Of a stretch of DNA of 64,000 nucleotides, positions 5,147 to 32,430 are shown in pieces. This DNA is from Symploca sp. SIO3C6 (GTDB taxonomy: Bacteria; Cyanobacteriota; Cyanobacteriia; Cyanobacteriales; Coleofasciculaceae). Under the pieces are notes generated by a model. The model searched no databases. It was not told where the DNA came from and saw only the letters and a program-made list of their open reading frames with translations. The stretch spans positions 186,001 through 250,000 of the forward strand of contig JAAHHJ010000001.1 of assembly GCA_010692425.1 (NCBI GenBank). Reading direction: 5' to 3'. The position numbers and the translations under genes were made by a program. The first letter of the stretch is position 1; each line of letters begins with the position of its first letter.

Positions 5147-6133
5147 TCAATAATTTTCCTCATATTCAAAGGTAGAATTAATATTTTTTAGAGCAGGATA
5201 TAAAGTTATAACTTCTTGTGTGATATGCCAATAATATCTATCTATAGAAGCCTCGATTCTTTCTTCAGATATCAAAATAGTAATAAAATATTGAAATAAT
5301 GAAATACTGCGCGGAATTTGATTTAGTTTGGTGGTTTGAATTTTCTGGGTTATTTGTTTAACGATTCCCTTGATTTTTTTTTCTTCAACTACATTTATCA
5401 GTAGACGATATAAATTATCACAAAAACGGCTCATGTCTTTTGGCTGAAGCTCATCAGGTATTTTTTTGTTTTCAAATAACTTATTTATTTCGGTTGCTAA
5501 GTTTTGTTTGATTTTGATTTCAGGATAATCATTATTTTCAATAAACTCCGAAGTTTTGTCAAAAGCAAGTATCAACATATCTAATTGCTCAACCGTTGCT
5601 TTAAGTTGTGCAGCTAAACGTAATTTTCTCCAGTCAATTTCAGAATTTTTATAGACAAGAGCGTGAGTTGAGACTGCCCAAGCGTGTTCAAAAGCACTTT
5701 TAATCTGAATTTCAAATTTAATTTGAAAAATACTTAAAACATTATCTTGAGTGATAGTATTATCACTTTTAAGTTGAGCATAAATTCGAGTTGAATCAAA
5801 CCTGAATGTATCTGGAGCTTTTTTATTTTGTCCTCTTTTAACTGTTCTGATGACTGCAAATGTTTGATTACAAAATACTGTTACTTCTTTTTCGTGAGAT
5901 AAAGTAGGAATGATAATTGTACAAGCGAACAAATCATCTAAATCAGACCATCTTTTAAATCGTCCTGTTTCAATTTTTTCAGCCAGAGATTCAATAGTTT
6001 TGATTCGAGAAGTAAACGCATATCCTTTGGTATCGCAAAAATTTAATAATGCTTCTTTTACTTTTTTAGCCACTTCTTTAACAAAAGGCTGATATTGATT
6101 GTATTTACGGTCTAGTATAGAAGGATAGATCAT
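5147..6133 (-). CDS. RelA/SpoT-domain nucleotidyltransferase, partner of DUF262 protein
   Basis: 328 residues. The N-terminal ~165 residues match the RelA/SpoT synthetase fold: R43/K45/S49/K53 in SRIKTIESLAEK, the acidic strand WSDLDDLFACTII (D66/D67), and the EIQIK-HAW-TH-YK block (E141, Q143, H157). The Arg usually ending the DxxGxR strand is Thr72, and the usual Arg of ExQxR is Lys145, so the substrate may differ from GTP/GDP. No HD hydrolase, TGS or ACT domain is present. The remaining ~160 residues are helical and not recognised. It starts 11 bases after the DUF262 gene, so the two are co-transcribed. The pair looks AT-richer than its neighbours, suggesting transfer. Family members make alarmones or pyrophosphorylate tRNA or adenosine as toxins; which applies here is unknown. 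Confidence 0.8.
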   Translation of the reverse strand: MIYPSILDRKYNQYQPFVKEVAKKVKEALLNFCDTKGYAFTSRIKTIESLAEKIETGRFKRWSDLDDLFACTIIIPTLSHEKEVTVFCNQTFAVIRTVKRGQNKKAPDTFRFDSTRIYAQLKSDNTITQDNVLSIFQIKFEIQIKSAFEHAWAVSTHALVYKNSEIDWRKLRLAAQLKATVEQLDMLILAFDKTSEFIENNDYPEIKIKQNLATEINKLFENKKIPDELQPKDMSRFCDNLYRLLINVVEEKKIKGIVKQITQKIQTTKLNQIPRSISLFQYFITILISEERIEASIDRYYWHITQEVITLYPALKNINSTFEYEENY

Positions 6134-6144
6134 ACATTATAAGA

Positions 6145-7230
6145 TTATTCTGAATGAATATCCCCCTTCAACAAAGATTTGACAATTTCAATTCTAATCT
6201 TTCTGGGACCTGCATCTGTAAAAGAAGACTTTACGGCGTTATAGTAATCTAGTGCTTTTTTTTGATAATTATCTAATTCATGTTTAGATTTACTCTGTAA
6301 TTTTTGATTTTGTACAATCTCTAAAAAATCGTAAATTTTTGAACCAGTATTTTCATCTATTTTTAATGTACCTTCGCGACTTAACTCAGCAACAGCACCA
6401 AATAAAGAATAAAAATCAGCCTGATTTTTTAACCTGGTTTTAGCCAAATTAACCTCTTTAGATAAATCTAAGATTTCTCCTATAGATTTAATAGTATTGC
6501 GAAATTCGTTTTCTATTTCATCCTTTTCTTCCCATGCACTATCTCGCTCAGTAAAAGCTCTATCAAGATAATCAGGACTATATGACTTTGCACCTTCTTC
6601 TAAAAATAATAGTAGTTGTGCTACCATTTCGATATCTTTCATTTGCTTTTTAGAAGTGGAATTAAGGTTAGGAAAATTTTTACAGTGTTTTTCTTTCTCT
6701 AAGTAATTAAACATCCAAGTGCATAAATCTTCGGCAAGAGTAATAAAATACCCGCTAAACTTTGCATGACGAAGCTCTTGACGAGTTAACTTACTAACAT
6801 TACGATTAATGCGATCAAAGATATTGCCAATAACATCTTCGTCAGATGATGGTAAGTATTCGATAGCAAATTGATACTTCCAAAATTCTTGTTTATCTTT
6901 AATTTCTAAATCTTTAAAGTATTTACCACTAAAGCGTTGAATTGTCGTTTTTTCGTATACCGGAAATTCATTACCAACAAATTGAAATAGAGTAGATAAC
7001 CTTTGTTTTCCATCAACTACGCTGACTTTAGAAACTCCTTCAGGAGTAATTTCTTGATATATGAAAATTGCGGGTGCTGGATATCCATGGAGTACTGTGT
7101 CAATAAAATAATCTTTATAGTCTTGATTCCAAACACTACGTCTTTGATAAGGCGGATCAAGATCAAGAAGACCTCTATTATATAAGTCCCAAAACCAAGA
7201 GATAGTTTGAAAGTTAATGGTTCTACTCAT
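6145..7230 (-). CDS. DUF262 (GmrS-like / ParB-fold) protein
   Basis: 361 residues. The N-terminal half is a DUF262 domain: a PPYQRRSVW motif at residues 26-34, the nucleotide-binding VVDGKQRLSTL motif (D73-R77), and FDRINRNVSKLTRQELRHAK. In GmrSD-type restriction enzymes DUF262 senses or hydrolyses NTP and is joined to a DUF1524 HNH nuclease. No HNH domain is present here, and the C-terminal half is helical. The partner gene encodes a RelA/SpoT enzyme instead. The ATG at 7230 begins MSRTINFQTISWFWDLYNRG. I infer a sensor/effector arrangement. Confidence 0.85.
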   Translation of the reverse strand: MSRTINFQTISWFWDLYNRGLLDLDPPYQRRSVWNQDYKDYFIDTVLHGYPAPAIFIYQEITPEGVSKVSVVDGKQRLSTLFQFVGNEFPVYEKTTIQRFSGKYFKDLEIKDKQEFWKYQFAIEYLPSSDEDVIGNIFDRINRNVSKLTRQELRHAKFSGYFITLAEDLCTWMFNYLEKEKHCKNFPNLNSTSKKQMKDIEMVAQLLLFLEEGAKSYSPDYLDRAFTERDSAWEEKDEIENEFRNTIKSIGEILDLSKEVNLAKTRLKNQADFYSLFGAVAELSREGTLKIDENTGSKIYDFLEIVQNQKLQSKSKHELDNYQKKALDYYNAVKSSFTDAGPRKIRIEIVKSLLKGDIHSE

Positions 7231-8918: not shown

Positions 8919-9701
8919 CTAACCAACTACCCGAATCGGACCTTGGGTACTAGCACTAAAAAATTGTCTAACTAGAGGATTATCAGTAGTATCAATCTCG
9001 CTAATATCACCTTGCCACTGTATCTTGCCGCTATAGAGAAAGACAACTCGATCAGCAGTGCGCCGAATCGTCGTGTCCTGGTGTGTCACCATTACATAAG
9101 TACCGCAACTGCCGTGTTCACATTGTAGCTTGCGGACTAAATCCTCAATCACCGTTGAGGCGATCGGGTCAAGCCCAGCTGTCGGTTCATCGTATAATAA
9201 AACTTCTGGGTTATCTTGGGGTTGATCTGGGTTAGAAATAATCGCACGAGCAAAGCTAACCCGCTTACGCATTCCACCTGACAAGTCAGCTGGGTACATC
9301 TCAGCAGTTCCAGACATTCCCACCATATCTAGACTTTCATTAACTAGTTGCCTGATCCTATCTCTGGGCAATTTAGAATGCTGGTAAAGTAAAAAACCGA
9401 CATTCTCGTCTACACTCAAAGAGTCAAATAAAGCCGCCTGCTGAAATACCATACCAATACCAATGGGGTCTTTGGCATCGTCGATTAAACCAGGGCGTAT
9501 CTGCCCTTGAACACGAATTTCTCCAGCATCAGGCAGCAGTAAGCCAGCAATAATTCGCAGAATGGTTGATTTCCCTGTCCCAGAGGGCCCGATAATTACT
9601 AAGGCTTCGCCCCGATGGATGGTCAAATCAACTTGATCGAGGATGATGTGACCACCAAAAGATTTACTAATTCCTTTAAGTTCAATTAGTGGCTCTGACA
9701 T
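8919..9701 (-). CDS. MlaF-like ABC transporter ATPase
   Basis: 260 residues with all ABC motifs: Walker A GPSGTGKS at 38-45, the Q-loop (GMVFQQAALFDSL), signature LSGGMRKR, Walker B VLLYDEPTAGLD and a switch His (MVTHQD). The GMRKR form of the signature and the VENVGFLL-like region fit the MlaF/Ttg2A lipid-transport subfamily. It lies upstream of the MCE gene on the same strand, separated by about 135 bases, and presumably powers that transporter with an MlaE permease encoded elsewhere. Confidence 0.9.
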   Translation of the reverse strand: MSEPLIELKGISKSFGGHIILDQVDLTIHRGEALVIIGPSGTGKSTILRIIAGLLLPDAGEIRVQGQIRPGLIDDAKDPIGIGMVFQQAALFDSLSVDENVGFLLYQHSKLPRDRIRQLVNESLDMVGMSGTAEMYPADLSGGMRKRVSFARAIISNPDQPQDNPEVLLYDEPTAGLDPIASTVIEDLVRKLQCEHGSCGTYVMVTHQDTTIRRTADRVVFLYSGKIQWQGDISEIDTTDNPLVRQFFSASTQGPIRVVG

Positions 9702-9766
9702 AAGGGGCTATAATTCCAGGAGTTCAAAGGAGTTCACAATTAATGAATGCTACTAGCGTGACATCT

Positions 9767-9796
9767 CCCACACCGAATCATAGATTACGGTGTAGG
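9767..9796 (-). ncRNA. right-end hairpin of the tnpB element (candidate omega-RNA 3' scaffold)
   Basis: On the tnpB strand, CCTACACCG (9796-9788, inside the last codons) pairs with CGGTGTGGG (9775-9767) around a 12-base loop that contains the stop codon. In IS200/IS605 elements the guide RNA of TnpB comes from the right end and overlaps the tnpB 3' end, with the guide copied from the sequence just outside. The structure is seen; the RNA assignment is inference. Confidence 0.4.
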
Positions 9797-11161
9797 CTTC
9801 TGGCTCCGCAAAGATTCCAGAACTTCCTTCGAGGTACTGTTGGTAGTAGAAGCAACTACTACTAGATTCCCTCTACGGCGTTTTATAGTGGGGAACATGC
9901 CCAGCCCCACTCGCTTTAAGTTGAGTGCACTATTGACATCGCGCTCAACAAGCAGATTCTCTTTCTCGTCGTACCACTCTCTGATGCCACAATCGGTGAA
10001 CACGAACTCGTCTCTGTAACTTAAAAGTTGAGAGGTATAAGCGGGGTTGCACTTTCTCGTTACTGCTCCAGCTTTTGAGGCTATGTAGTCCAGCACTGAG
10101 AAAAACTGACCGAATGCAGCATCAAGCCACGACTTGTTCAATCCGGATTTGACGGATTGACCATTGGGCAAATACTTCCCGTTCTTGTCCTGTTTGGCTT
10201 GGTTTCGTTTGGTTAAATTCTTGAGCTTTAAGTCTTCGTAGAAGAACACATATTTGCCTGAGCGTACCAACTCATTAGCTGTATTGTAGGCATGGTCTTT
10301 CCTTGCTCTTGCTATTCGTTGATGTTCTCTGCTCTGGCGCTTGGCAAGCAAGCGGCGAGATTTTGAACCTTTTTTCTTGAGCGATTTTCGCCTAGATACT
10401 TTAGCTAGCCTATCTTGAGACTTCCGAAAAGACTTGAGTGACGGCAGTTTGGTATTATCGGAGGTGGCTAGATAATCATCCTTGTGCAATACCGCGTCCA
10501 TTCCCATCGAGTTATCCCAAGTTGGAACAATCTTGTCAGGGCTGAACACTGGTACAGTTGGATTTTCTAGTACCAGCGAGGTATGCCAACCATCAGCCTT
10601 CTTAGTCAGAAGAAGGTTTTTAAGCTTAAACCCATCAGGTAATAAGCGATGCAACCGAATTTTTAACCATCCAGAAAGCTTAGCTATAGAAATCCATAAG
10701 CAACGTTTTTCAATTCTTTGGATAGTTATTGCCTGCCCTTCAATCTTAAGTGTGCGGTATTGTGCCGCATTTTTGAAGCGAGGTTTACCACTTCGTTTAC
10801 CATTTCTGTCCCCTTTGACAAAGCGTTCAAAAGCTTTCTTTGTCCTGTTGCAAACGTCTTGCAAGGTCTGAGATGGCAAGCGGGTAAAGTCAAGCAGTTC
10901 TCCGGAATGGTAGACCAGCGTTAGGTCTTTTTTCTTGCCTGGTAGAAGCTTTTTCTGAGAGTAGTAGTCTGGTTTGTCTTTGAGTTCGGGGAGATGGCAA
11001 ATCAAGGGGCAGGAATTAAGTGCACATCGATTCTGTTCCCACCATTGAAACCTTTCGCCTAGCTGCCAGTTGTACCAGTACTGCGCCAATCTACGCCAGT
11101 AGTTTAACTCTAGCTTTTGTGTCGTATTTGGATATGCGCGGTACTGATAGTTTAACAACAC
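9785..11161 (-). CDS. tnpB: IS605-type TnpB (OrfB) RNA-guided nuclease-like transposase accessory protein
   Basis: 458 residues from the GTG at 11161, chosen because AAGGAGG sits eight bases upstream; the GTG at 11170 overlaps that site and is unlikely. The N-terminal part has the TnpB pattern (LLNYQYRAYPNTTQK, RLPSQTLQDVCNRTKKAF, GKPRFK). RuvC catalytic acids are retained: D222 (GMD), E309 (FFYEDLKLKNL) and D408 (ERDVNSALNL). The zinc finger that normally sits between the second and third has only a lone Cys pair left (CNPAYTSQ, TDCGI) and not the two CxxC knuckles. There is no TnpA partner, so mobility would need one in trans. The gene interrupts the spacing between chlI and the mla genes. 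Confidence 0.88.
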   Translation of the reverse strand: MLLNYQYRAYPNTTQKLELNYWRRLAQYWYNWQLGERFQWWEQNRCALNSCPLICHLPELKDKPDYYSQKKLLPGKKKDLTLVYHSGELLDFTRLPSQTLQDVCNRTKKAFERFVKGDRNGKRSGKPRFKNAAQYRTLKIEGQAITIQRIEKRCLWISIAKLSGWLKIRLHRLLPDGFKLKNLLLTKKADGWHTSLVLENPTVPVFSPDKIVPTWDNSMGMDAVLHKDDYLATSDNTKLPSLKSFRKSQDRLAKVSRRKSLKKKGSKSRRLLAKRQSREHQRIARARKDHAYNTANELVRSGKYVFFYEDLKLKNLTKRNQAKQDKNGKYLPNGQSVKSGLNKSWLDAAFGQFFSVLDYIASKAGAVTRKCNPAYTSQLLSYRDEFVFTDCGIREWYDEKENLLVERDVNSALNLKRVGLGMFPTIKRRRGNLVVVASTTNSTSKEVLESLRSQKPTP

Positions 11162-11253
11162 AGGTCTCACCTCCTTCTTTTTATTATCGTTTTACCCATT
11201 GCAATGCAACAATACCGCATGACATTTGATTAGGTGGCTGCCCCACTTACACA

Positions 11254-11351
11254 GGCAATTCATGAGGGGCTGTCGCACCAAATTCATTTCGGTGCGTTTA
11301 AACGCCCCGTCCCACTCTGACCCTCCGGGTACAGACGTGGGATGAATTGCC
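11254..11351. repeat. nested palindromic structure upstream of tnpB (probable left end)
   Basis: An outer inverted repeat GGCAATTCAT (11254-11263) / ATGAATTGCC (11342-11351) encloses two inner hairpins: GCACC (11275-11279) / GGTGC (11291-11295), and TCCCAC-TCTG-ACCC / GGGT-CAGA-GTGGGA (11310-11342), the latter broken only by single-base bulges. This could form a branched structure. It begins eight bases from the chlI stop. Likely the left end of the tnpB element; an alternative is a chlI 3' end structure. Confidence 0.6.
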
Positions 11352-11358
11352 GGACAAG

Positions 11359-12435
11359 CTAAGTCGCGCTATTATCCTCCGACGACTCCTCTAATCCAAA
11401 AACCCGGCTAAAGGCTTTTTGTACTTTATAGCCTGAATCAATTGATTCGAGAGGGTCTTTGCGTAGCCGATGGCGTAGACTTAAGGTAATCACGCGGCGG
11501 ATATCTTCAACTGTAACTTCCTGACGTCCTTCAAAAGCTGCCAGTGCTTTGGCTGCTCGGTTTGTAACAATATCGCCCCGTAGCCCATCCACGTCTAGTT
11601 CTGAACAGACTTCGGAAATCTTCACTCGTAAATCGTAGTCCATCCCAACTTTCGGAAGTCGCTCTTGAGCCATAACTATCCGCTTCTGTAATTCTTCTTG
11701 AGCTGCGTGGTGCTTTTGAATGTATTCCTGTGGTTTTTGGTCGAATTCTGCCCTTTCTTCTACTATCTGCACTCGTAGGGCTGGCTCTTTCACAGTGTGG
11801 ATTTCTGCGTGCATACCGAAACGGTCAAGTAGCTGTGGTCTTAGTTCCCCTTCTTCTGGGTTGCCTGAACCGACTAACACAAAGCGTGCTGGGTGACGAA
11901 TGGAAATTCCTTCCCGTTCCACTGTGTTCCAGCCGCTGGCAGCTGAATCCAACAGTACATCTACTAAGTGGTCGTCTAATAGATTAACCTCGTCTACATA
12001 GAGGATACCACGATTAGCCTTGGCAAGGAGTCCTGGTTCAAAGGCTTTAACGCCTTCAGATAATGCTTTTTCAATATCAATGGTGCCGCAAACACGGTCT
12101 TCTGTTGCCCCTAAGGGCAAGTCAACCATAGATACCTTTTTCTTGACAATTGTCCTTGAGTGTGCTGAACCATTACCATTCATCCAGTCGGGTTCATTCG
12201 GGTCACTGTTGAAGGGGTCATCAGCAATTACGTCAATTTCTGGCAACAAGTCAGCCAATGCCCTAATGGTAGTAGACTTGCCTGTACCGCGATCGCCCAT
12301 AATCATTACCCCACCAATTTTGGGGTCAATTACATTCAGCAGTAGAGCCAGTTTCATTTCTTCCTGGCCGACAATAGCAGTGAAAGGAAATATTAAGCGG
12401 TGATCAGTCTTAGGCGCTGTGGCAGTCGGACTCAC
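11359..12435 (-). CDS. chlI: magnesium chelatase ATPase subunit I
   Basis: ChlI is the AAA+ subunit of the ChlI-ChlD-ChlH complex that inserts Mg2+ into protoporphyrin IX, the first committed step of chlorophyll synthesis. 358 residues: Walker A GDRGTGKS at 47-54, Walker B ([17 protein letters not shown]), the arginine-finger region ([13 protein letters not shown]) and sensor 2 ([20 protein letters not shown]). The start is GTG at 12435 ([17 protein letters not shown] follows), with only a weak ribosome binding site. A DUF429 gene lies upstream on the same strand and the tnpB element downstream. ChlD and ChlH are not in the window. Confidence 0.96.
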
Positions 12436-28239: not shown

Positions 28240-31200
28240 CTATTGAATACCATCACATAATTTACTATCACTTTCTCCTAAATTCTGATTATTCTTCAGG
28301 TAATCCTTGATCCAATCACAGCCACGCACCAATAATTTATCGAGGTCTAATATATATTCATCATCTTGATCCTGCAAACGCCATAAAATAATTTTATTAT
28401 CATCACTAGCTGAAGCGAGCATTGCGCCATCTGGGCTGAAACTGACGCTATTAACCTTATCAGTATGACCCTTAAGGGTAGTAATTAGAGAGCCATCTTT
28501 ACTCCAAAGCTTCACTGTGTTGTCAGCACTAGTTGTAGCAATAGTCTCACTTGTTTTATCAAAGCTTAAACCGACAACACCATCGCTATGTCCATCAGTA
28601 TTTTCTAATTCAGAATTTTTTCCTAGAATTCCCAAAGGAGTTCCATCTGTATTCCAGAGTCTAACTGTGTTATCATAACTAGCAGTTGTTATGGTCTGCC
28701 CCTGCTGACCAAACCGGGCATCAAACACCCAACCATCATGACCAGAAATAGTGTCACTTAGAATAGCGTCTTCCACATTCCAGAGTTTAACTGTTTTATC
28801 CCAACTAGTTGAAGCTAGAGTTTGACCATCGGGACTAAAGCGCACACTCAAGACACCTTCTATATGGCCATCAGCAGAATTTCCTAAGGTTTTAACCTTG
28901 GTGCCATCACTCTTCCAAATTATCACTGTTCTGTCTTGACTACCAGAGGCAATTAGTTTACCATCAGGACTAAAAGTAACATCATTGACAGGAGCCCCAT
29001 GACCAGAGAGGGTTGTGATTAGCCTGCCTTCCCGACTCCAAAGCCTCACTGTGCGATCGCTACTGGCAGAAGCTAGAATTCTACCATCGGGAGAAAAACT
29101 TACACTTCTGACTACATCTCCATGACGTTGGTTAGTTTCGATGAGAGTTCCATCAGGTTTCCATAGCTTAACCGTTCTATCAGCACTAGCCGAAGCCAGC
29201 AACTTACCATCTGGAGAAAAGGCTACATCTAGAACTTGAGCTCGATGTTCTTGCAGGGGTATAGTTAACTCAGCTTCTCGTTCTAATTGCCACAGTTTGA
29301 CTGTGCGATCGCCTCCTGCTGAAACTAGCATTTTCCCATCATCATTAAAGCTCAAACTCCTTACTTGCGAACTATGTCCAGTTAAGGTACTTTTGAGAGT
29401 GCCATCTAGTTTCCAGATTTTGATGGTTTTGTCTTCACTAGCAGAAGCAACAGTTTTACCATCGTCACTAAAATCTACATCGAACACTCTTTTATTGTGA
29501 GCTCTAATTATTTTACTGTTACCATCTAGTTTCCAGAGTCTGATGGTTTGATCCCAACTAGCCGAAGCCAGAGTTTTACCATCTCGACTAAAGCTCAGAC
29601 CATAGACTCTAGCATTATGTCCCCTCAAAGTTCTAATCCATCTACCGTCTTTTTGCCACAATCTTACCGCCTTATCATCACTAGCTGAAGCGAGGATATT
29701 ACCCTCAGGGCTAAACTCTACATCCCTGACTGCGGCATTATGTCCTCTAATAGTTGTTACTAGAGTAACCTTAGTACCGTCAAGTTGCCAGATTTTCACG
29801 GTGGCATCTTCACTAGCAGAGGCAATTGTCTCTCCATCTGGAGAGAAACTCACATCATCAACTGGCTTTTCATGTCCTTCTAAAGTTGTAATGAGAGTGC
29901 CATCCGACTTCCAAATTTTTACCGTCTTATCATCGCTAGTAGAAGCAATCATACTACTATCATCGGAAAAACTCACTCCCAAAACTTGACCCTTATGTCC
30001 TTGCTTATTTCCTTCCAAATATCCTTTAATATCAGTAATTAGAGTACCATCCGGCTTCCAAAGCTTGATGGTATTATCTCCACTCACCGAGGCAATCATC
30101 TTGCCATCAGGACTAAAGCTAACATCCCAAATTAAACCCTCGTGACCATCAAAACGATTACGTTCTCTTACCAAATAAACTGCATTGAAAAGTGAAGTGA
30201 TAATTGATTTATATAGCGGTTTTTTATTTGCGTATTCCTGAATTTTTTGTTTGTGTTCAGGATATTTTTGGAGTTCCTTTCCAGCTCTGATTCCTTCTAT
30301 TAAAGCATCTAGAATTTGCTGAGAACTAAATAAAGCTTCTGAAGTTTTACTCAAAGATTTTAAACTTTCTGTTTCTGCTATCTCGGATGCTTCTACTGCC
30401 CGATTTTTGGCTTCTACTGCCGTCTTTGTAGCTTTTTCAGCCTCTCCTTGAGCTTTTTCAGCCTGTTTTTGAGCTTCTTCAGCCAGTTTAGTTTTTTGGA
30501 CAGCTTGCCAACCAAAAATAACAGAAGCAGTACAGGCTGCACTTACTAAGACAAGTAACACTTTTACAACTAATTGCTGCCTCCTTTCACGTTTTTCCTC
30601 AGCTTCAATTTCCTCTCTACTACTATTAATAAATTCTTTCTGCAAATTAGTTGGAGTAGGTTGTCTCTTATTTTGCTCTGCCTCCTGCAACCAAAATTGA
30701 GCAATAGAAAATTCACTACCTCGCAATAGCAAATCTTTATCTTTATCTTGTTGCTGCCACTCAAATGCTTGTTGCGACCATTTGGTATGACTTCTCACAT
30801 AATCTCTGTCTGTATCAACAGTTCTAACTAATTCACTAAAGTTAGCGTAAAAATCGCCATCATACTGATTAAAATCAATCCATTGAACCTTTCGCAATAC
30901 TGGATGCAATTCACTAGTTGAAACTTGTTGATGGAGAATAGTGATAAATCTTTTATTTAAACTCTGAGCATATTCCACCTCGTCTGCACAATAAGGGGAA
31001 TTTACAGATTTAGGGGAAATGATGAACAGGAAGTTATCGCTATTTTGGATTCCACGATAAATTTCTTCTTGAAAATTACTTCCTGGTGGAATACTTTCCT
31101 GGTCAAACCAAGTGGTTTTACCTTGTATTTGCAGTGCTTCGTTTAATTTTCTAGCGAAATCAGAATCAGCACGGGAATAGGAAATAAATACTTCTAGAGA

Positions 31201-32430
31201 TGATTCGACTGCTTGAGCACTGCTCGCTTCAATAAACTCTTTTTGTAATGGTAGAGGGGGATGATTATGACGCTTTCGATTTACCTTTAGCCAGTTTTGG
31301 TAATACTCTAGGTTATGTCCTCTCAACAATATGCTATAATTGCAATTTTGCCTCTCCCACTTGAGAGCTTTAACTAACAAAACTTTATGGTCTTCATAAT
31401 AGCGCTCATCTTCCTTTAAGACCTTTAATAACTTATCAAACTTGCGGTTATATACAGCTTGCTCTTGATGATTTTTTAAATCGATAAATTGTATTGCTTT
31501 GATATGGGAGGGAATACTGGTTAGTTCTGTAGGAGCAATTAATAGTGGAATAATACGTTTTTTTAAAGTCAAAGCATATTCAATCTCTTGCTGACAGTAT
31601 TTTGATTCTAAAGAATCAGGTGAAATTAAGTAAACTATGTTAGAAGCCCCTTCAATCCCGTGGTCTATTTCTTCCTGAAATTGAATGCCAGTTTGAATAT
31701 CAGTTTTATTAGTCCAAACCGTTAATCCATAACGTCTCAAACTCTTAGTAATTTTCTCCATAACCCCCCTATTATATTCGGAGTAGCTAAGAAATACCTG
31801 AGACATTAAGTTATTACCATTCTTGGTACTTTCTGTAATGAACTCACAGTGTAAATCAGTAGGAATACAAGGAGCTTGTTCTTTTTTAAATCTTCTTTTT
31901 AGCCAAGACTCTGCCTGTTTCCTCTCCTCTCCCACTAACAGATAATTATTTTGTTTTTGATTTCTTGCCCACTCTTGAGCTTTAACTAAAAATTTCGTAT
32001 GCTGTTGAACATAATCATTATGCTGCTGAATAAGTTTAGTTAAGCCCTCAAACGAATCTTCAAAATTATCTTTATCTTCTTGAAAATAAATCCAATTAAT
32101 TCTGCCAATAGTGGGGTGCATTTTATCCCAACAGTCACTAGGTTCAACGTGAAGCAGAGGAATAATACGCTTATTAAGTCTAATTGCTAATTCGATTTCT
32201 TTGAGACAATATTGAGATTTAACAGAATGGGGAGCAATGATAAAGACAAAGTTATGAGAGCGCTCGATACCATCATCAATTTGATTTTGAAAGTCTACCC
32301 CCAAAGGAATATCATTTTGGTCAAACCAAACCCTTAAGCCCCATTGAATCAACCTGTGGTGCAATTTAGTGGCAAATGCTTTAGAGTCTCTGCGACCATA
32401 GGATATGAAAGTATCAAAGAAACTTTTCAT
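28240..32430 (-). CDS. triple-TIR, 14-WD40 repeat membrane-anchored protein
   Basis: 1,396 residues. Three TIR domains (about 1-140, 210-345, 411-545), each starting with a [FV][IL]SYxxxx strand, a GxxxxQxxIxxGIxxS helix and a C-(x)2-E-[IV]-E segment that holds the likely catalytic Glu (YCLKEIELA, YCQQEIEYA, YCADEVEYA). Each is followed by the same ~65-residue helical linker (Y...H...A.EW...LLRG...WL...EFI.S), so the whole unit is triplicated. Then a TM helix (about 621-643, KVLLVLVSAACTASVIFGW), a coiled coil (KQAEKAQGEAEKATKTAVEA), and 14 WD40 repeats (about 759-1350), enough for two seven-blade propellers. TIR domains of this type can be NAD+ hydrolases; propellers would sense a partner. 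An isolated gene, convergent with glyK. Confidence 0.93.
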   Translation of the reverse strand: MKSFFDTFISYGRRDSKAFATKLHHRLIQWGLRVWFDQNDIPLGVDFQNQIDDGIERSHNFVFIIAPHSVKSQYCLKEIELAIRLNKRIIPLLHVEPSDCWDKMHPTIGRINWIYFQEDKDNFEDSFEGLTKLIQQHNDYVQQHTKFLVKAQEWARNQKQNNYLLVGEERKQAESWLKRRFKKEQAPCIPTDLHCEFITESTKNGNNLMSQVFLSYSEYNRGVMEKITKSLRRYGLTVWTNKTDIQTGIQFQEEIDHGIEGASNIVYLISPDSLESKYCQQEIEYALTLKKRIIPLLIAPTELTSIPSHIKAIQFIDLKNHQEQAVYNRKFDKLLKVLKEDERYYEDHKVLLVKALKWERQNCNYSILLRGHNLEYYQNWLKVNRKRHNHPPLPLQKEFIEASSAQAVESSLEVFISYSRADSDFARKLNEALQIQGKTTWFDQESIPPGSNFQEEIYRGIQNSDNFLFIISPKSVNSPYCADEVEYAQSLNKRFITILHQQVSTSELHPVLRKVQWIDFNQYDGDFYANFSELVRTVDTDRDYVRSHTKWSQQAFEWQQQDKDKDLLLRGSEFSIAQFWLQEAEQNKRQPTPTNLQKEFINSSREEIEAEEKRERRQQLVVKVLLVLVSAACTASVIFGWQAVQKTKLAEEAQKQAEKAQGEAEKATKTAVEAKNRAVEASEIAETESLKSLSKTSEALFSSQQILDALIEGIRAGKELQKYPEHKQKIQEYANKKPLYKSIITSLFNAVYLVRERNRFDGHEGLIWDVSFSPDGKMIASVSGDNTIKLWKPDGTLITDIKGYLEGNKQGHKGQVLGVSFSDDSSMIASTSDDKTVKIWKSDGTLITTLEGHEKPVDDVSFSPDGETIASASEDATVKIWQLDGTKVTLVTTIRGHNAAVRDVEFSPEGNILASASDDKAVRLWQKDGRWIRTLRGHNARVYGLSFSRDGKTLASASWDQTIRLWKLDGNSKIIRAHNKRVFDVDFSDDGKTVASASEDKTIKIWKLDGTLKSTLTGHSSQVRSLSFNDDGKMLVSAGGDRTVKLWQLEREAELTIPLQEHRAQVLDVAFSPDGKLLASASADRTVKLWKPDGTLIETNQRHGDVVRSVSFSPDGRILASASSDRTVRLWSREGRLITTLSGHGAPVNDVTFSPDGKLIASGSQDRTVIIWKSDGTKVKTLGNSADGHIEGVLSVRFSPDGQTLASTSWDKTVKLWNVEDAILSDTISGHDGWVFDARFGQQGQTITTASYDNTVRLWNTDGTPLGILGKNSELENTDGHSDGVVGLSFDKTSETIATTSADNTVKLWSKDGSLITTLKGHTDKVNSVSFSPDGAMLASASDDNKIILWRLQDQDDEYILDLDKLLVRGCDWIKDYLKNNQNLGESDSKLCDGIQ

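What the first reader, a model, noticed from the sequence alone, without database searches (positions are those of the whole stretch)
9785..11161. TnpB that keeps RuvC acids but has lost most zinc-finger cysteines
D222, E309 and D408 are all present, so nuclease activity is possible, but the region between the second and third acids has only isolated Cys residues instead of two CxxC knuckles. Solitary with an intact frame and a strong ribosome site, it may be retained for a function other than transposition.
Basis: partly seen in the sequence, partly recalled or inferred. Interest (0 to 1): 0.5.

Follow-up and report, generated by a model that had tools for sequence, protein, structure and literature searches.

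The report
Zinc-finger-free TnpB clade in cyanobacteria
The gene is a TnpB, the RNA-guided DNA cutter carried by a jumping gene, from a large cyanobacterial branch in which the usual zinc finger was replaced once by a conserved, apparently metal-free module of the same length, so the zinc is probably dispensable for at least one natural lineage.

Summary
The minus-strand ORF is a TnpB with D222/E309/D408 (start 11161) and no zinc ligands. It is not recent decay: 53 of 53 distinct intact relatives (mostly 56-92% identical, cyanobacteria) keep all three acids and none has a CxxC. A 34-aa, hydrophobic, acidic module replaces the zinc ribbon. With those columns left out of the tree, the group is one branch; its probable sister TnpBs keep the finger.

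The idea that it serves something other than transposition is not supported for the group. Relatives lie in multicopy IS605-type elements with Y1 TnpA, TTAG target and GTCAC end. The window element (9758-11358) is a tnpA-less derivative at the stop codon of chlI.

The tnpB 3' end and right end form a strongly covarying omegaRNA. Synonymous sites are conserved exactly there, and two genomes of the genus carry tnpB-free mini-elements that keep this RNA. The likely picture is a working RNA-guided nuclease whose zinc finger was replaced, with RuvC-I also changed to GxDAVL. Activity and metal content are untested. New variant of a known kind.

The parts
9785..11161 (-). tnpB, 458 aa, GTG start after AAGGAGG; RuvC acids D222/E309/D408
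   Evidence: guided_TnpB NF040570 161.9 bits against cut-off 100; PF12323, PF01385, PF07282 all above cut-off
9941..10045 (-). zinc-free TNB module (residues 376-410 in 461-aa numbering) between RuvC-II and RuvC-III
   Evidence: pLDDT of the 10-residue blocks there 89-96 in the 72-sequence AlphaFold2 model
9758..11358 (-). whole IS605-type element, tnpA-less, 1601 bp
   Evidence: end sequences set by multicopy break points of relatives, found in the window
11359..11362 (-). TTAG target (inferred TAM) at the left end; its TAG is the stop codon of chlI
   Evidence: chlI ORF 11359-12435, Mg_chelatase PF01078
11254..11351 (-). left-end palindrome; its GAAG box is replaced by the complement of the other arm
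   Evidence: compare L001 with L002/L003; left-end list
9758..9940 (-). omegaRNA scaffold overlapping the 3' end of tnpB and the right end
   Evidence: covariance model R1: 179.9 bits, E 3.4e-48 (the window's sequence is among those the model was built from); covariation counts
9887..9911 (-). omegaRNA stem 1 inside the coding sequence (AGTGGGG...CCCCACT)
   Evidence: columns 30-54 of A6, 99.4% of cells paired, 5 of 7 pairs with a change on both sides
9767..9796 (-). right-end hairpin
   Evidence: columns 180-213 of A6, 10 of 10 pairs with a change on both sides, 93.3% of cells paired
9738..9757 (-). predicted guide: first 20 nt after the GTCAC end
   Evidence: sequence; guide placement inferred from known TnpB systems

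Best explanation
[quoted passage not shown] Shown by sequence: intact RuvC acids, loss of all zinc ligands across the clade, purifying selection, zinc-bearing probable sister branch, element ends, Y1 tnpA in relatives, covarying omegaRNA. Inferred: TnpB binds the omegaRNA processed from the 3' end of its own transcript, uses the 20 or so nt beyond the right end as guide, recognises TTAG, and cuts donor or empty sites so that the element is kept. The TNB module would place DNA near the RuvC site without zinc. The window copy lost tnpA and its left-end box; its TnpB may still cut, and still serve tnpB-free relatives in trans, but the copy probably no longer moves by itself.
For: Family; fold: best VIA match ISDra2 TnpB 8exa, Z 27.0, 3.5 A over 334 residues, model range 3-427. 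Clade-wide zinc loss with triad kept. Single branch with TNB columns left out, SH-aLRT 100, zinc-bearing sister L054/L055/L056/L080 at support 83. Selection: dN/dS between 0.04 and 0.14 in seven close pairs; mean dN of the module 0.084 against 0.083 for RuvC residues 221-370, dS 0.92 and 0.95, 60 pairs. Module: hydrophobic fraction 0.40 against 0.20, F/W/Y 6.1 against 2.2, net charge -4.6 against +0.7, length 34 against 35 (41 clade, 104 other rows). Element. omegaRNA: 96.8% of 1077 cells paired against 76.3% in shuffles and 37-46% when slid; fourfold-site identity 0.64-0.69 in codons 421-460 against 0.27-0.43 before. omegaRNA-only mini-elements.
Against: No activity or metal measurement. The AlphaFold2 model built from clade sequences alone failed (pLDDT 42.9); the good one (90.4) used zinc-bearing homologues too, so the shape of the module may be borrowed from them. 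TTAG and TCAC counts over many loci come from patterns that demand them; the independent support is the multicopy break points. The empty-site relative has TCCG, not TTAG, at the junction. Sister support is 83 in a quick tree. In ISDra2 TnpB most zinc-finger substitutions are depleted (PMC11844463, one passage), so loss of function is a real possibility.
Confidence: 0.8

Rival explanations
1. A crippled nuclease: zinc loss plus the changed RuvC-I (GxDAVL for the usual D-hydrophobic-G) leave an RNA-guided DNA binder or nickase that is kept as a regulator or for element biology without double-strand cutting.
For: RuvC-I reads G-x-D-A-V-L in 53/53, where PMC10711439 gives D-hydrophobic-G as typical of TnpB (passages); the module is strongly acidic; most zinc-finger substitutions of ISDra2 TnpB are depleted.
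Against: All three acids 53/53; RuvC under the same selection as the rest; the group travels with tnpA and spreads, unlike an immobile regulator.
Confidence: 0.12
2. The window copy has been kept by the host for a cellular role of its own, apart from transposition.
For: Solitary, intact frame, no tnpA, damaged left end; low dN/dS against close copies.
Against: Close copies are themselves mobile-element genes; of the four chlI loci of relatives printed, one is a clear empty site and none shows the insertion, so it is not a conserved locus; low dN/dS may date from mobile ancestors.
Confidence: 0.08
3. Recent decay of an ordinary zinc-finger TnpB.
For: Some copies in the same genome carry a stop codon.
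Against: 0 of 53 clade proteins has a CxxC and the replacement residues are conserved; dN of the module equals that of RuvC.
Confidence: 0.01
4. Zinc is still bound through displaced ligands, for example C394, D401 and the conserved CPLxC stretch at residues 54-58.
For: C54 is invariant in the 9- and 11-sequence clade alignments, C58 in the 9-sequence one; C394 is Cys in 42/53 and D401 is 53/53.
Against: The CPLxC stretch is shared with zinc-finger relatives (invariant there too), so it does not replace the finger; 8 of 53 have no Cys in residues 370-411 and 29 have one.
Confidence: 0.05

Closest known systems
ISDra2 TnpB (PDB 8exa, 8h1j, 8bf8)
   Same: WED, REC, RuvC order, DED triad, TNB insert between RuvC-II and RuvC-III, omegaRNA overlapping the 3' end (PMC10097598 passages).
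   Different: ISDra2 has a CCCC zinc finger (C331, C334, C351, C354) and TAM TTGAT; here there are no ligands, the inferred TAM is TTAG, RuvC-I is DAVL, and a long C-terminal tail is predicted ordered where that of ISDra2 is disordered.
Cyanobacterial zinc-finger TnpBs of the L054/L055/L056/L080 group
   Same: Probable sister branch; the omegaRNA model finds the same RNA at their 3' ends (50-68 bits); right end ...TCAC.
   Different: Four zinc ligands present (one Cys spacing differs in L055); no two-residue insertion in RuvC-I, DAGL in three of the four; short C-terminal tail.
C2c8 (type V-U2 effector, NCBIfam NF038192; PADLOC Cas12u2)
   Same: Distant similarity: 89.3 bits, 115.5 bits.
   Different: Far below the NCBIfam cut-off of 350; the two above-cut-off C2c8 proteins fetched carry full CxxC...CxxC.
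Pro-Fanzor TnpBs of cyanobacteria (PMC10711439)
   Same: Cyanobacterial TnpBs with an unusual RuvC-I.
   Different: Those carry DPG, a shifted glutamate and IS607 TnpA (passages); here DAVL, canonical glutamate and Y1 TnpA.

Membership tests
TnpB (IS200/IS605 RNA-guided nuclease) | Profile membership | tested here: met
   NF040570 161.9 bits against 100; three Pfam domains above cut-off
TnpB (IS200/IS605 RNA-guided nuclease) | RuvC D-E-D triad | tested here: met
   53 of 53
TnpB (IS200/IS605 RNA-guided nuclease) | omegaRNA overlapping 3' end and right end | tested here: met
TnpB (IS200/IS605 RNA-guided nuclease) | CxxC...CxxC zinc finger in TNB (usual, not universal: 'many TnpBs and Fanzors', PMC10711439 passage; I do not treat it as defining) | tested here: not met
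   0 of 53 with CxxC; the domain profile still matches at 32.3 bits against cut-off 26.3, sisters 58.7 and 52.3
TnpB (IS200/IS605 RNA-guided nuclease) | Guided DNA cleavage next to a TAM | not testable with these tools
   needs biochemistry
IS605-type element with Y1 TnpA | Y1 TnpA in the element | tested here: met
   Met in 32 of 57 clade CDS, PF01797; not in the window copy
IS605-type element with Y1 TnpA | Insertion 3' of a short target without duplication, hairpin ends | tested here: met
C2c8 / Cas12 (type V-U2) | Above the family cut-off | tested here: not met
   89.3 against 350 bits
C2c8 / Cas12 (type V-U2) | CRISPR array nearby | not tested
   no array search was run around the locus
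TnpB-like nuclease-dead repressor (TldR; recalled) | Loss of RuvC acids | tested here: not met
   acids intact
Pro-Fanzor | DPG motif | tested here: not met
   DAV 53 of 53

The most novel reading that the evidence does not exclude
A whole, actively spreading TnpB lineage runs on a metal-free TNB module that arose together with a rebuilt RuvC-I loop (GxDAVL plus two residues). Its acidic surface would change how DNA is loaded or which strands are cut. It also supplies, in trans, RNA-only mini-elements in the same genomes that keep just the ends and the omegaRNA.
Probability: 0.35. Interest if true: 0.7.

Novelty: new variant of a known kind. Interest (0 to 1): 0.5.

Why it matters
The zinc finger of TnpB and of several Cas12 proteins is usually drawn as a fixed part of the nuclease, and in ISDra2 TnpB most substitutions there are depleted (PMC11844463). 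A natural clade that dispenses with it, under purifying selection and with its guide RNA intact, is a ready experiment on what the finger does. The tnpB-free mini-elements that keep the RNA in two genomes would let one test trans-acting TnpB guides in a natural host. It also warns that searches requiring CxxC...CxxC, such as the expressions quoted from PMC10711439, miss whole TnpB branches.

Tried and rejected
Recent decay, displaced ligands and membership in C2c8 or pro-Fanzor were tested and rejected or left unlikely (see rivals and membership). Rfam gave no match in 9500-11600 at E up to 1 and none in the window at gathering scores. Foldseek listed TnpB and Cas12 structures (E 1.3e-18 for ISFba1 TnpB); no zinc-free TnpB was recognised among the rows shown, which proves nothing. 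The empty site of a mini-element was sought by one whole-locus search of L253 in the own genome: only one flank matched, so no clean empty site. A viral contigs pattern scan for the mini-element core found nothing. A clade-only AlphaFold2 model failed.

Literature: ten full-text searches listed no title or abstract about a zinc-finger-free TnpB clade. Seen: the search listings, passages of eight papers (PMC10442227, PMC10097598, PMC11844463, PMC11423790, PMC10711439, PMC12669027, PMC9956272, PMC10278001) and section 13 of PMC10278001. The most relevant survey, Altae-Tran et al. 2023 PNAS, is not held and was not read; trans-acting standalone omegaRNAs of IscB are recalled from Altae-Tran et al. 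2021, not held either. So priority is not claimed.

Rows dropped: L138 (second copy of the window) from clade counts; loci with frameshifts, stops or truncation; L124, L125 and L049 (wrong right-end pick inside the gene) and L105 (no pick) from A6; 20 of 41 clade rows and part of the others from the tree; of the 87 viral loci L158-L244, 72 were checked and 62 used in A5. In one search, 51 of 76 loci with at least 150 nt upstream matched the left-end pattern and 25 did not; at least two of the 51 (L106, L048) are pattern hits inside the end.

Full report
Observation. The minus-strand ORF ending at 9785 is an IS605-type TnpB (guided_TnpB, 161.9 bits against a cut-off of 100). Between the second and third acids there are two lone cysteines, 374 and 394.

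A clade, not a decayed copy. The own genome (G000) has further members at 89, 85 and 60% identity plus a split copy. In genomes drawn evenly from the order, 63 of 388 have a match at E at most 1e-110 (24 of 149 genera); the plasmid collection has three at 57-61% identity, and one viral contig of IMG/VR two copies. I extracted 57 intact near-full-length coding sequences besides a duplicate of the window, 53 of them distinct over residues 101-420. The triad is 53/53. The ligand columns are L383 53/53, 386 R 42, K 10, C 1, D401 53/53 and 404 mostly E; CxxC is 0/53. The replacement is itself conserved: P376, L383, F391, T392, R397, D401, R410 are 53/53. RuvC-I reads G-x-D-A-V-L in 53/53, with two residues more than the relatives before the next strand.

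Origin. Relatives at roughly 38-47% identity keep the finger where that part is present. A quick maximum-likelihood tree of 85 rows, with the TNB columns left out, puts the 21 zinc-free rows on one branch (SH-aLRT 100); the next branch is the zinc-bearing L054/L055/L056/L080 group (support 83). One replacement on the stem is the simplest reading; the sister relation is only fairly supported.

What replaced the finger. The insert keeps its length (34 against 35 residues) but is twice as hydrophobic, has nearly three times the aromatic residues, and is acidic, -4.6 against +0.7 (41 clade rows, 104 others). Its dN (0.084) equals that of RuvC (0.083) over 60 pairs. AlphaFold2 with 72 sequences gives mean pLDDT 90.4, with 89-96 for the blocks of the module and a strand pair at 398-401 and 406-409; the clade-only run failed, so the fold of the module rests partly on zinc-bearing homologues. 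The structural match is ISDra2 TnpB (Z 27.0, 3.5 A, 334 residues). My reading is that a hydrophobic core does the work of the metal; that is inference.

The element. Identical copies in G523, G578, G338 and G187 diverge next to TTAG on the left and after GTCAC or TTCAC on the right. In these and others the 500-600 bp upstream hold a divergent Y1 TnpA (32 of 57 CDS). In the window these ends lie at 11359-11362 (TTAG) and 9758. TTAG contains the stop codon of chlI. The same-genus genome G452 has the uninterrupted junction ...GCGACTCCG|GCTAGCAACATTC against ...GCGACTTAG|element|GCTAGTAGCATTC in the window; the four junction bases differ (TCCG, TTAG), so the empty site proves the place but not the target. 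The window copy has no tnpA, and the GAAG box before its left-end hairpin has been replaced by the complement of the other arm.

Guide RNA. Fourfold-degenerate sites agree 0.27-0.43 along codons 1-420 but 0.64-0.69 in codons 421-460. Over 49 sequences RNAalifold finds four helices: 96.8% of 1077 cells are paired, 18 of 22 pairs change on both sides, covariation score 0.583 against 0.189 in shuffles and at most 0.088 when slid. The structure was derived from the same alignment, which favours it over the slid versions, but the gap is very wide. One pair inside the coding sequence occurs as GC 19, UA 14, CG 13, AU 3 with no exception. The model built from it also finds the RNA at the 3' ends of zinc-bearing relatives (for example 68.2 bits in L055), which points to common descent and to an RNA that was kept when the finger went.

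RNA-only mini-elements. The model finds 29 places in the own genome at E at most 0.001. Three of them (L245-L247; 377, 396, 426 bp) have the left end, about 200 bp without tnpA or tnpB, the omegaRNA and the right end. A search of 20 family genomes found them in 2, G000 and G452. Of 19 loci inspected, 13 have both ends (377-436 bp), 3 are 65-bp right-end units, and 3 lack a clear left end. All 10 loci scored against the model match it (58.8-114 bits), although the stretch between two helices, which is coding in tnpB, is about 20 nt shorter there; the A-U pair of the long-range helix in the window is U-A in the best of them. They look like passengers that use TnpA and TnpB in trans; that is inference.

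How it most likely works. TnpB matures the omegaRNA from its transcript, takes the first 16-20 nt beyond the right end as guide, reads TTAG as TAM and cuts sites the element has left or could enter, as for known TnpBs (PMC10097598 and PMC10278001, passages and one section seen). The zinc-free module would do the loading job of the zinc ribbon. Against: in ISDra2 most zinc-finger substitutions are depleted (PMC11844463, one passage), and nothing here measures activity or metal.

Known or new. PMC10711439 says that many, not all, TnpBs carry the finger (passage). Ten searches listed no paper on a zinc-free TnpB clade, but the main survey (Altae-Tran 2023) is not held. I file it as a new variant of TnpB, interest 0.5.

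Noticed in passing
L245:787-1163, L246:844-1239, L247:733-1158 (own genome), L253-L267 (mostly G452): Mini-elements of 377-436 bp with both IS ends and a complete omegaRNA but no tnpA or tnpB: candidate trans-acting guide RNAs.
   Followed up: partly
L270, L271, L272: 65-bp units, 60 bp of them identical to the mini-element's right end: TTAG plus the right-end hairpin to GTCAC. How they arose is unclear.
   Followed up: no
L003:2930-3070 (+); similar by eye in L125 and L126: Some tnpA-less copies carry a divergent ORF of 47 aa or so; the one in L003 matches NikA-like (E 6e-7) and weakly RHH/CopG. Possibly a small DNA-binding regulator.
   Followed up: partly
window 11254-11351 and L112 left end: The left-end hairpin's GAAG arm has been turned into the complement of the other arm, in two tnpA-less copies of different genomes; looks like hairpin-templated conversion.
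   Followed up: no
window 5147-7230 (-): Adjacent ORFs: a GmrSD_N (DUF262) protein, PADLOC NsnA 138.6 bits, and a RelA/SpoT-domain protein. May be a defence pair.
   Followed up: no
window 28240-32430 (-): 1396-aa protein with three TIR-like stretches by PADLOC matches and what reads as C-terminal WD40 repeats (recalled motif, not scanned).
   Followed up: no
residues 54-60 of the TnpB (CPLICHL), window about 10991-11011: Conserved CPLxCHLPEL stretch shared with zinc-finger cyanobacterial TnpBs; low model confidence (block 51-60 pLDDT 55); function unknown.
   Followed up: no
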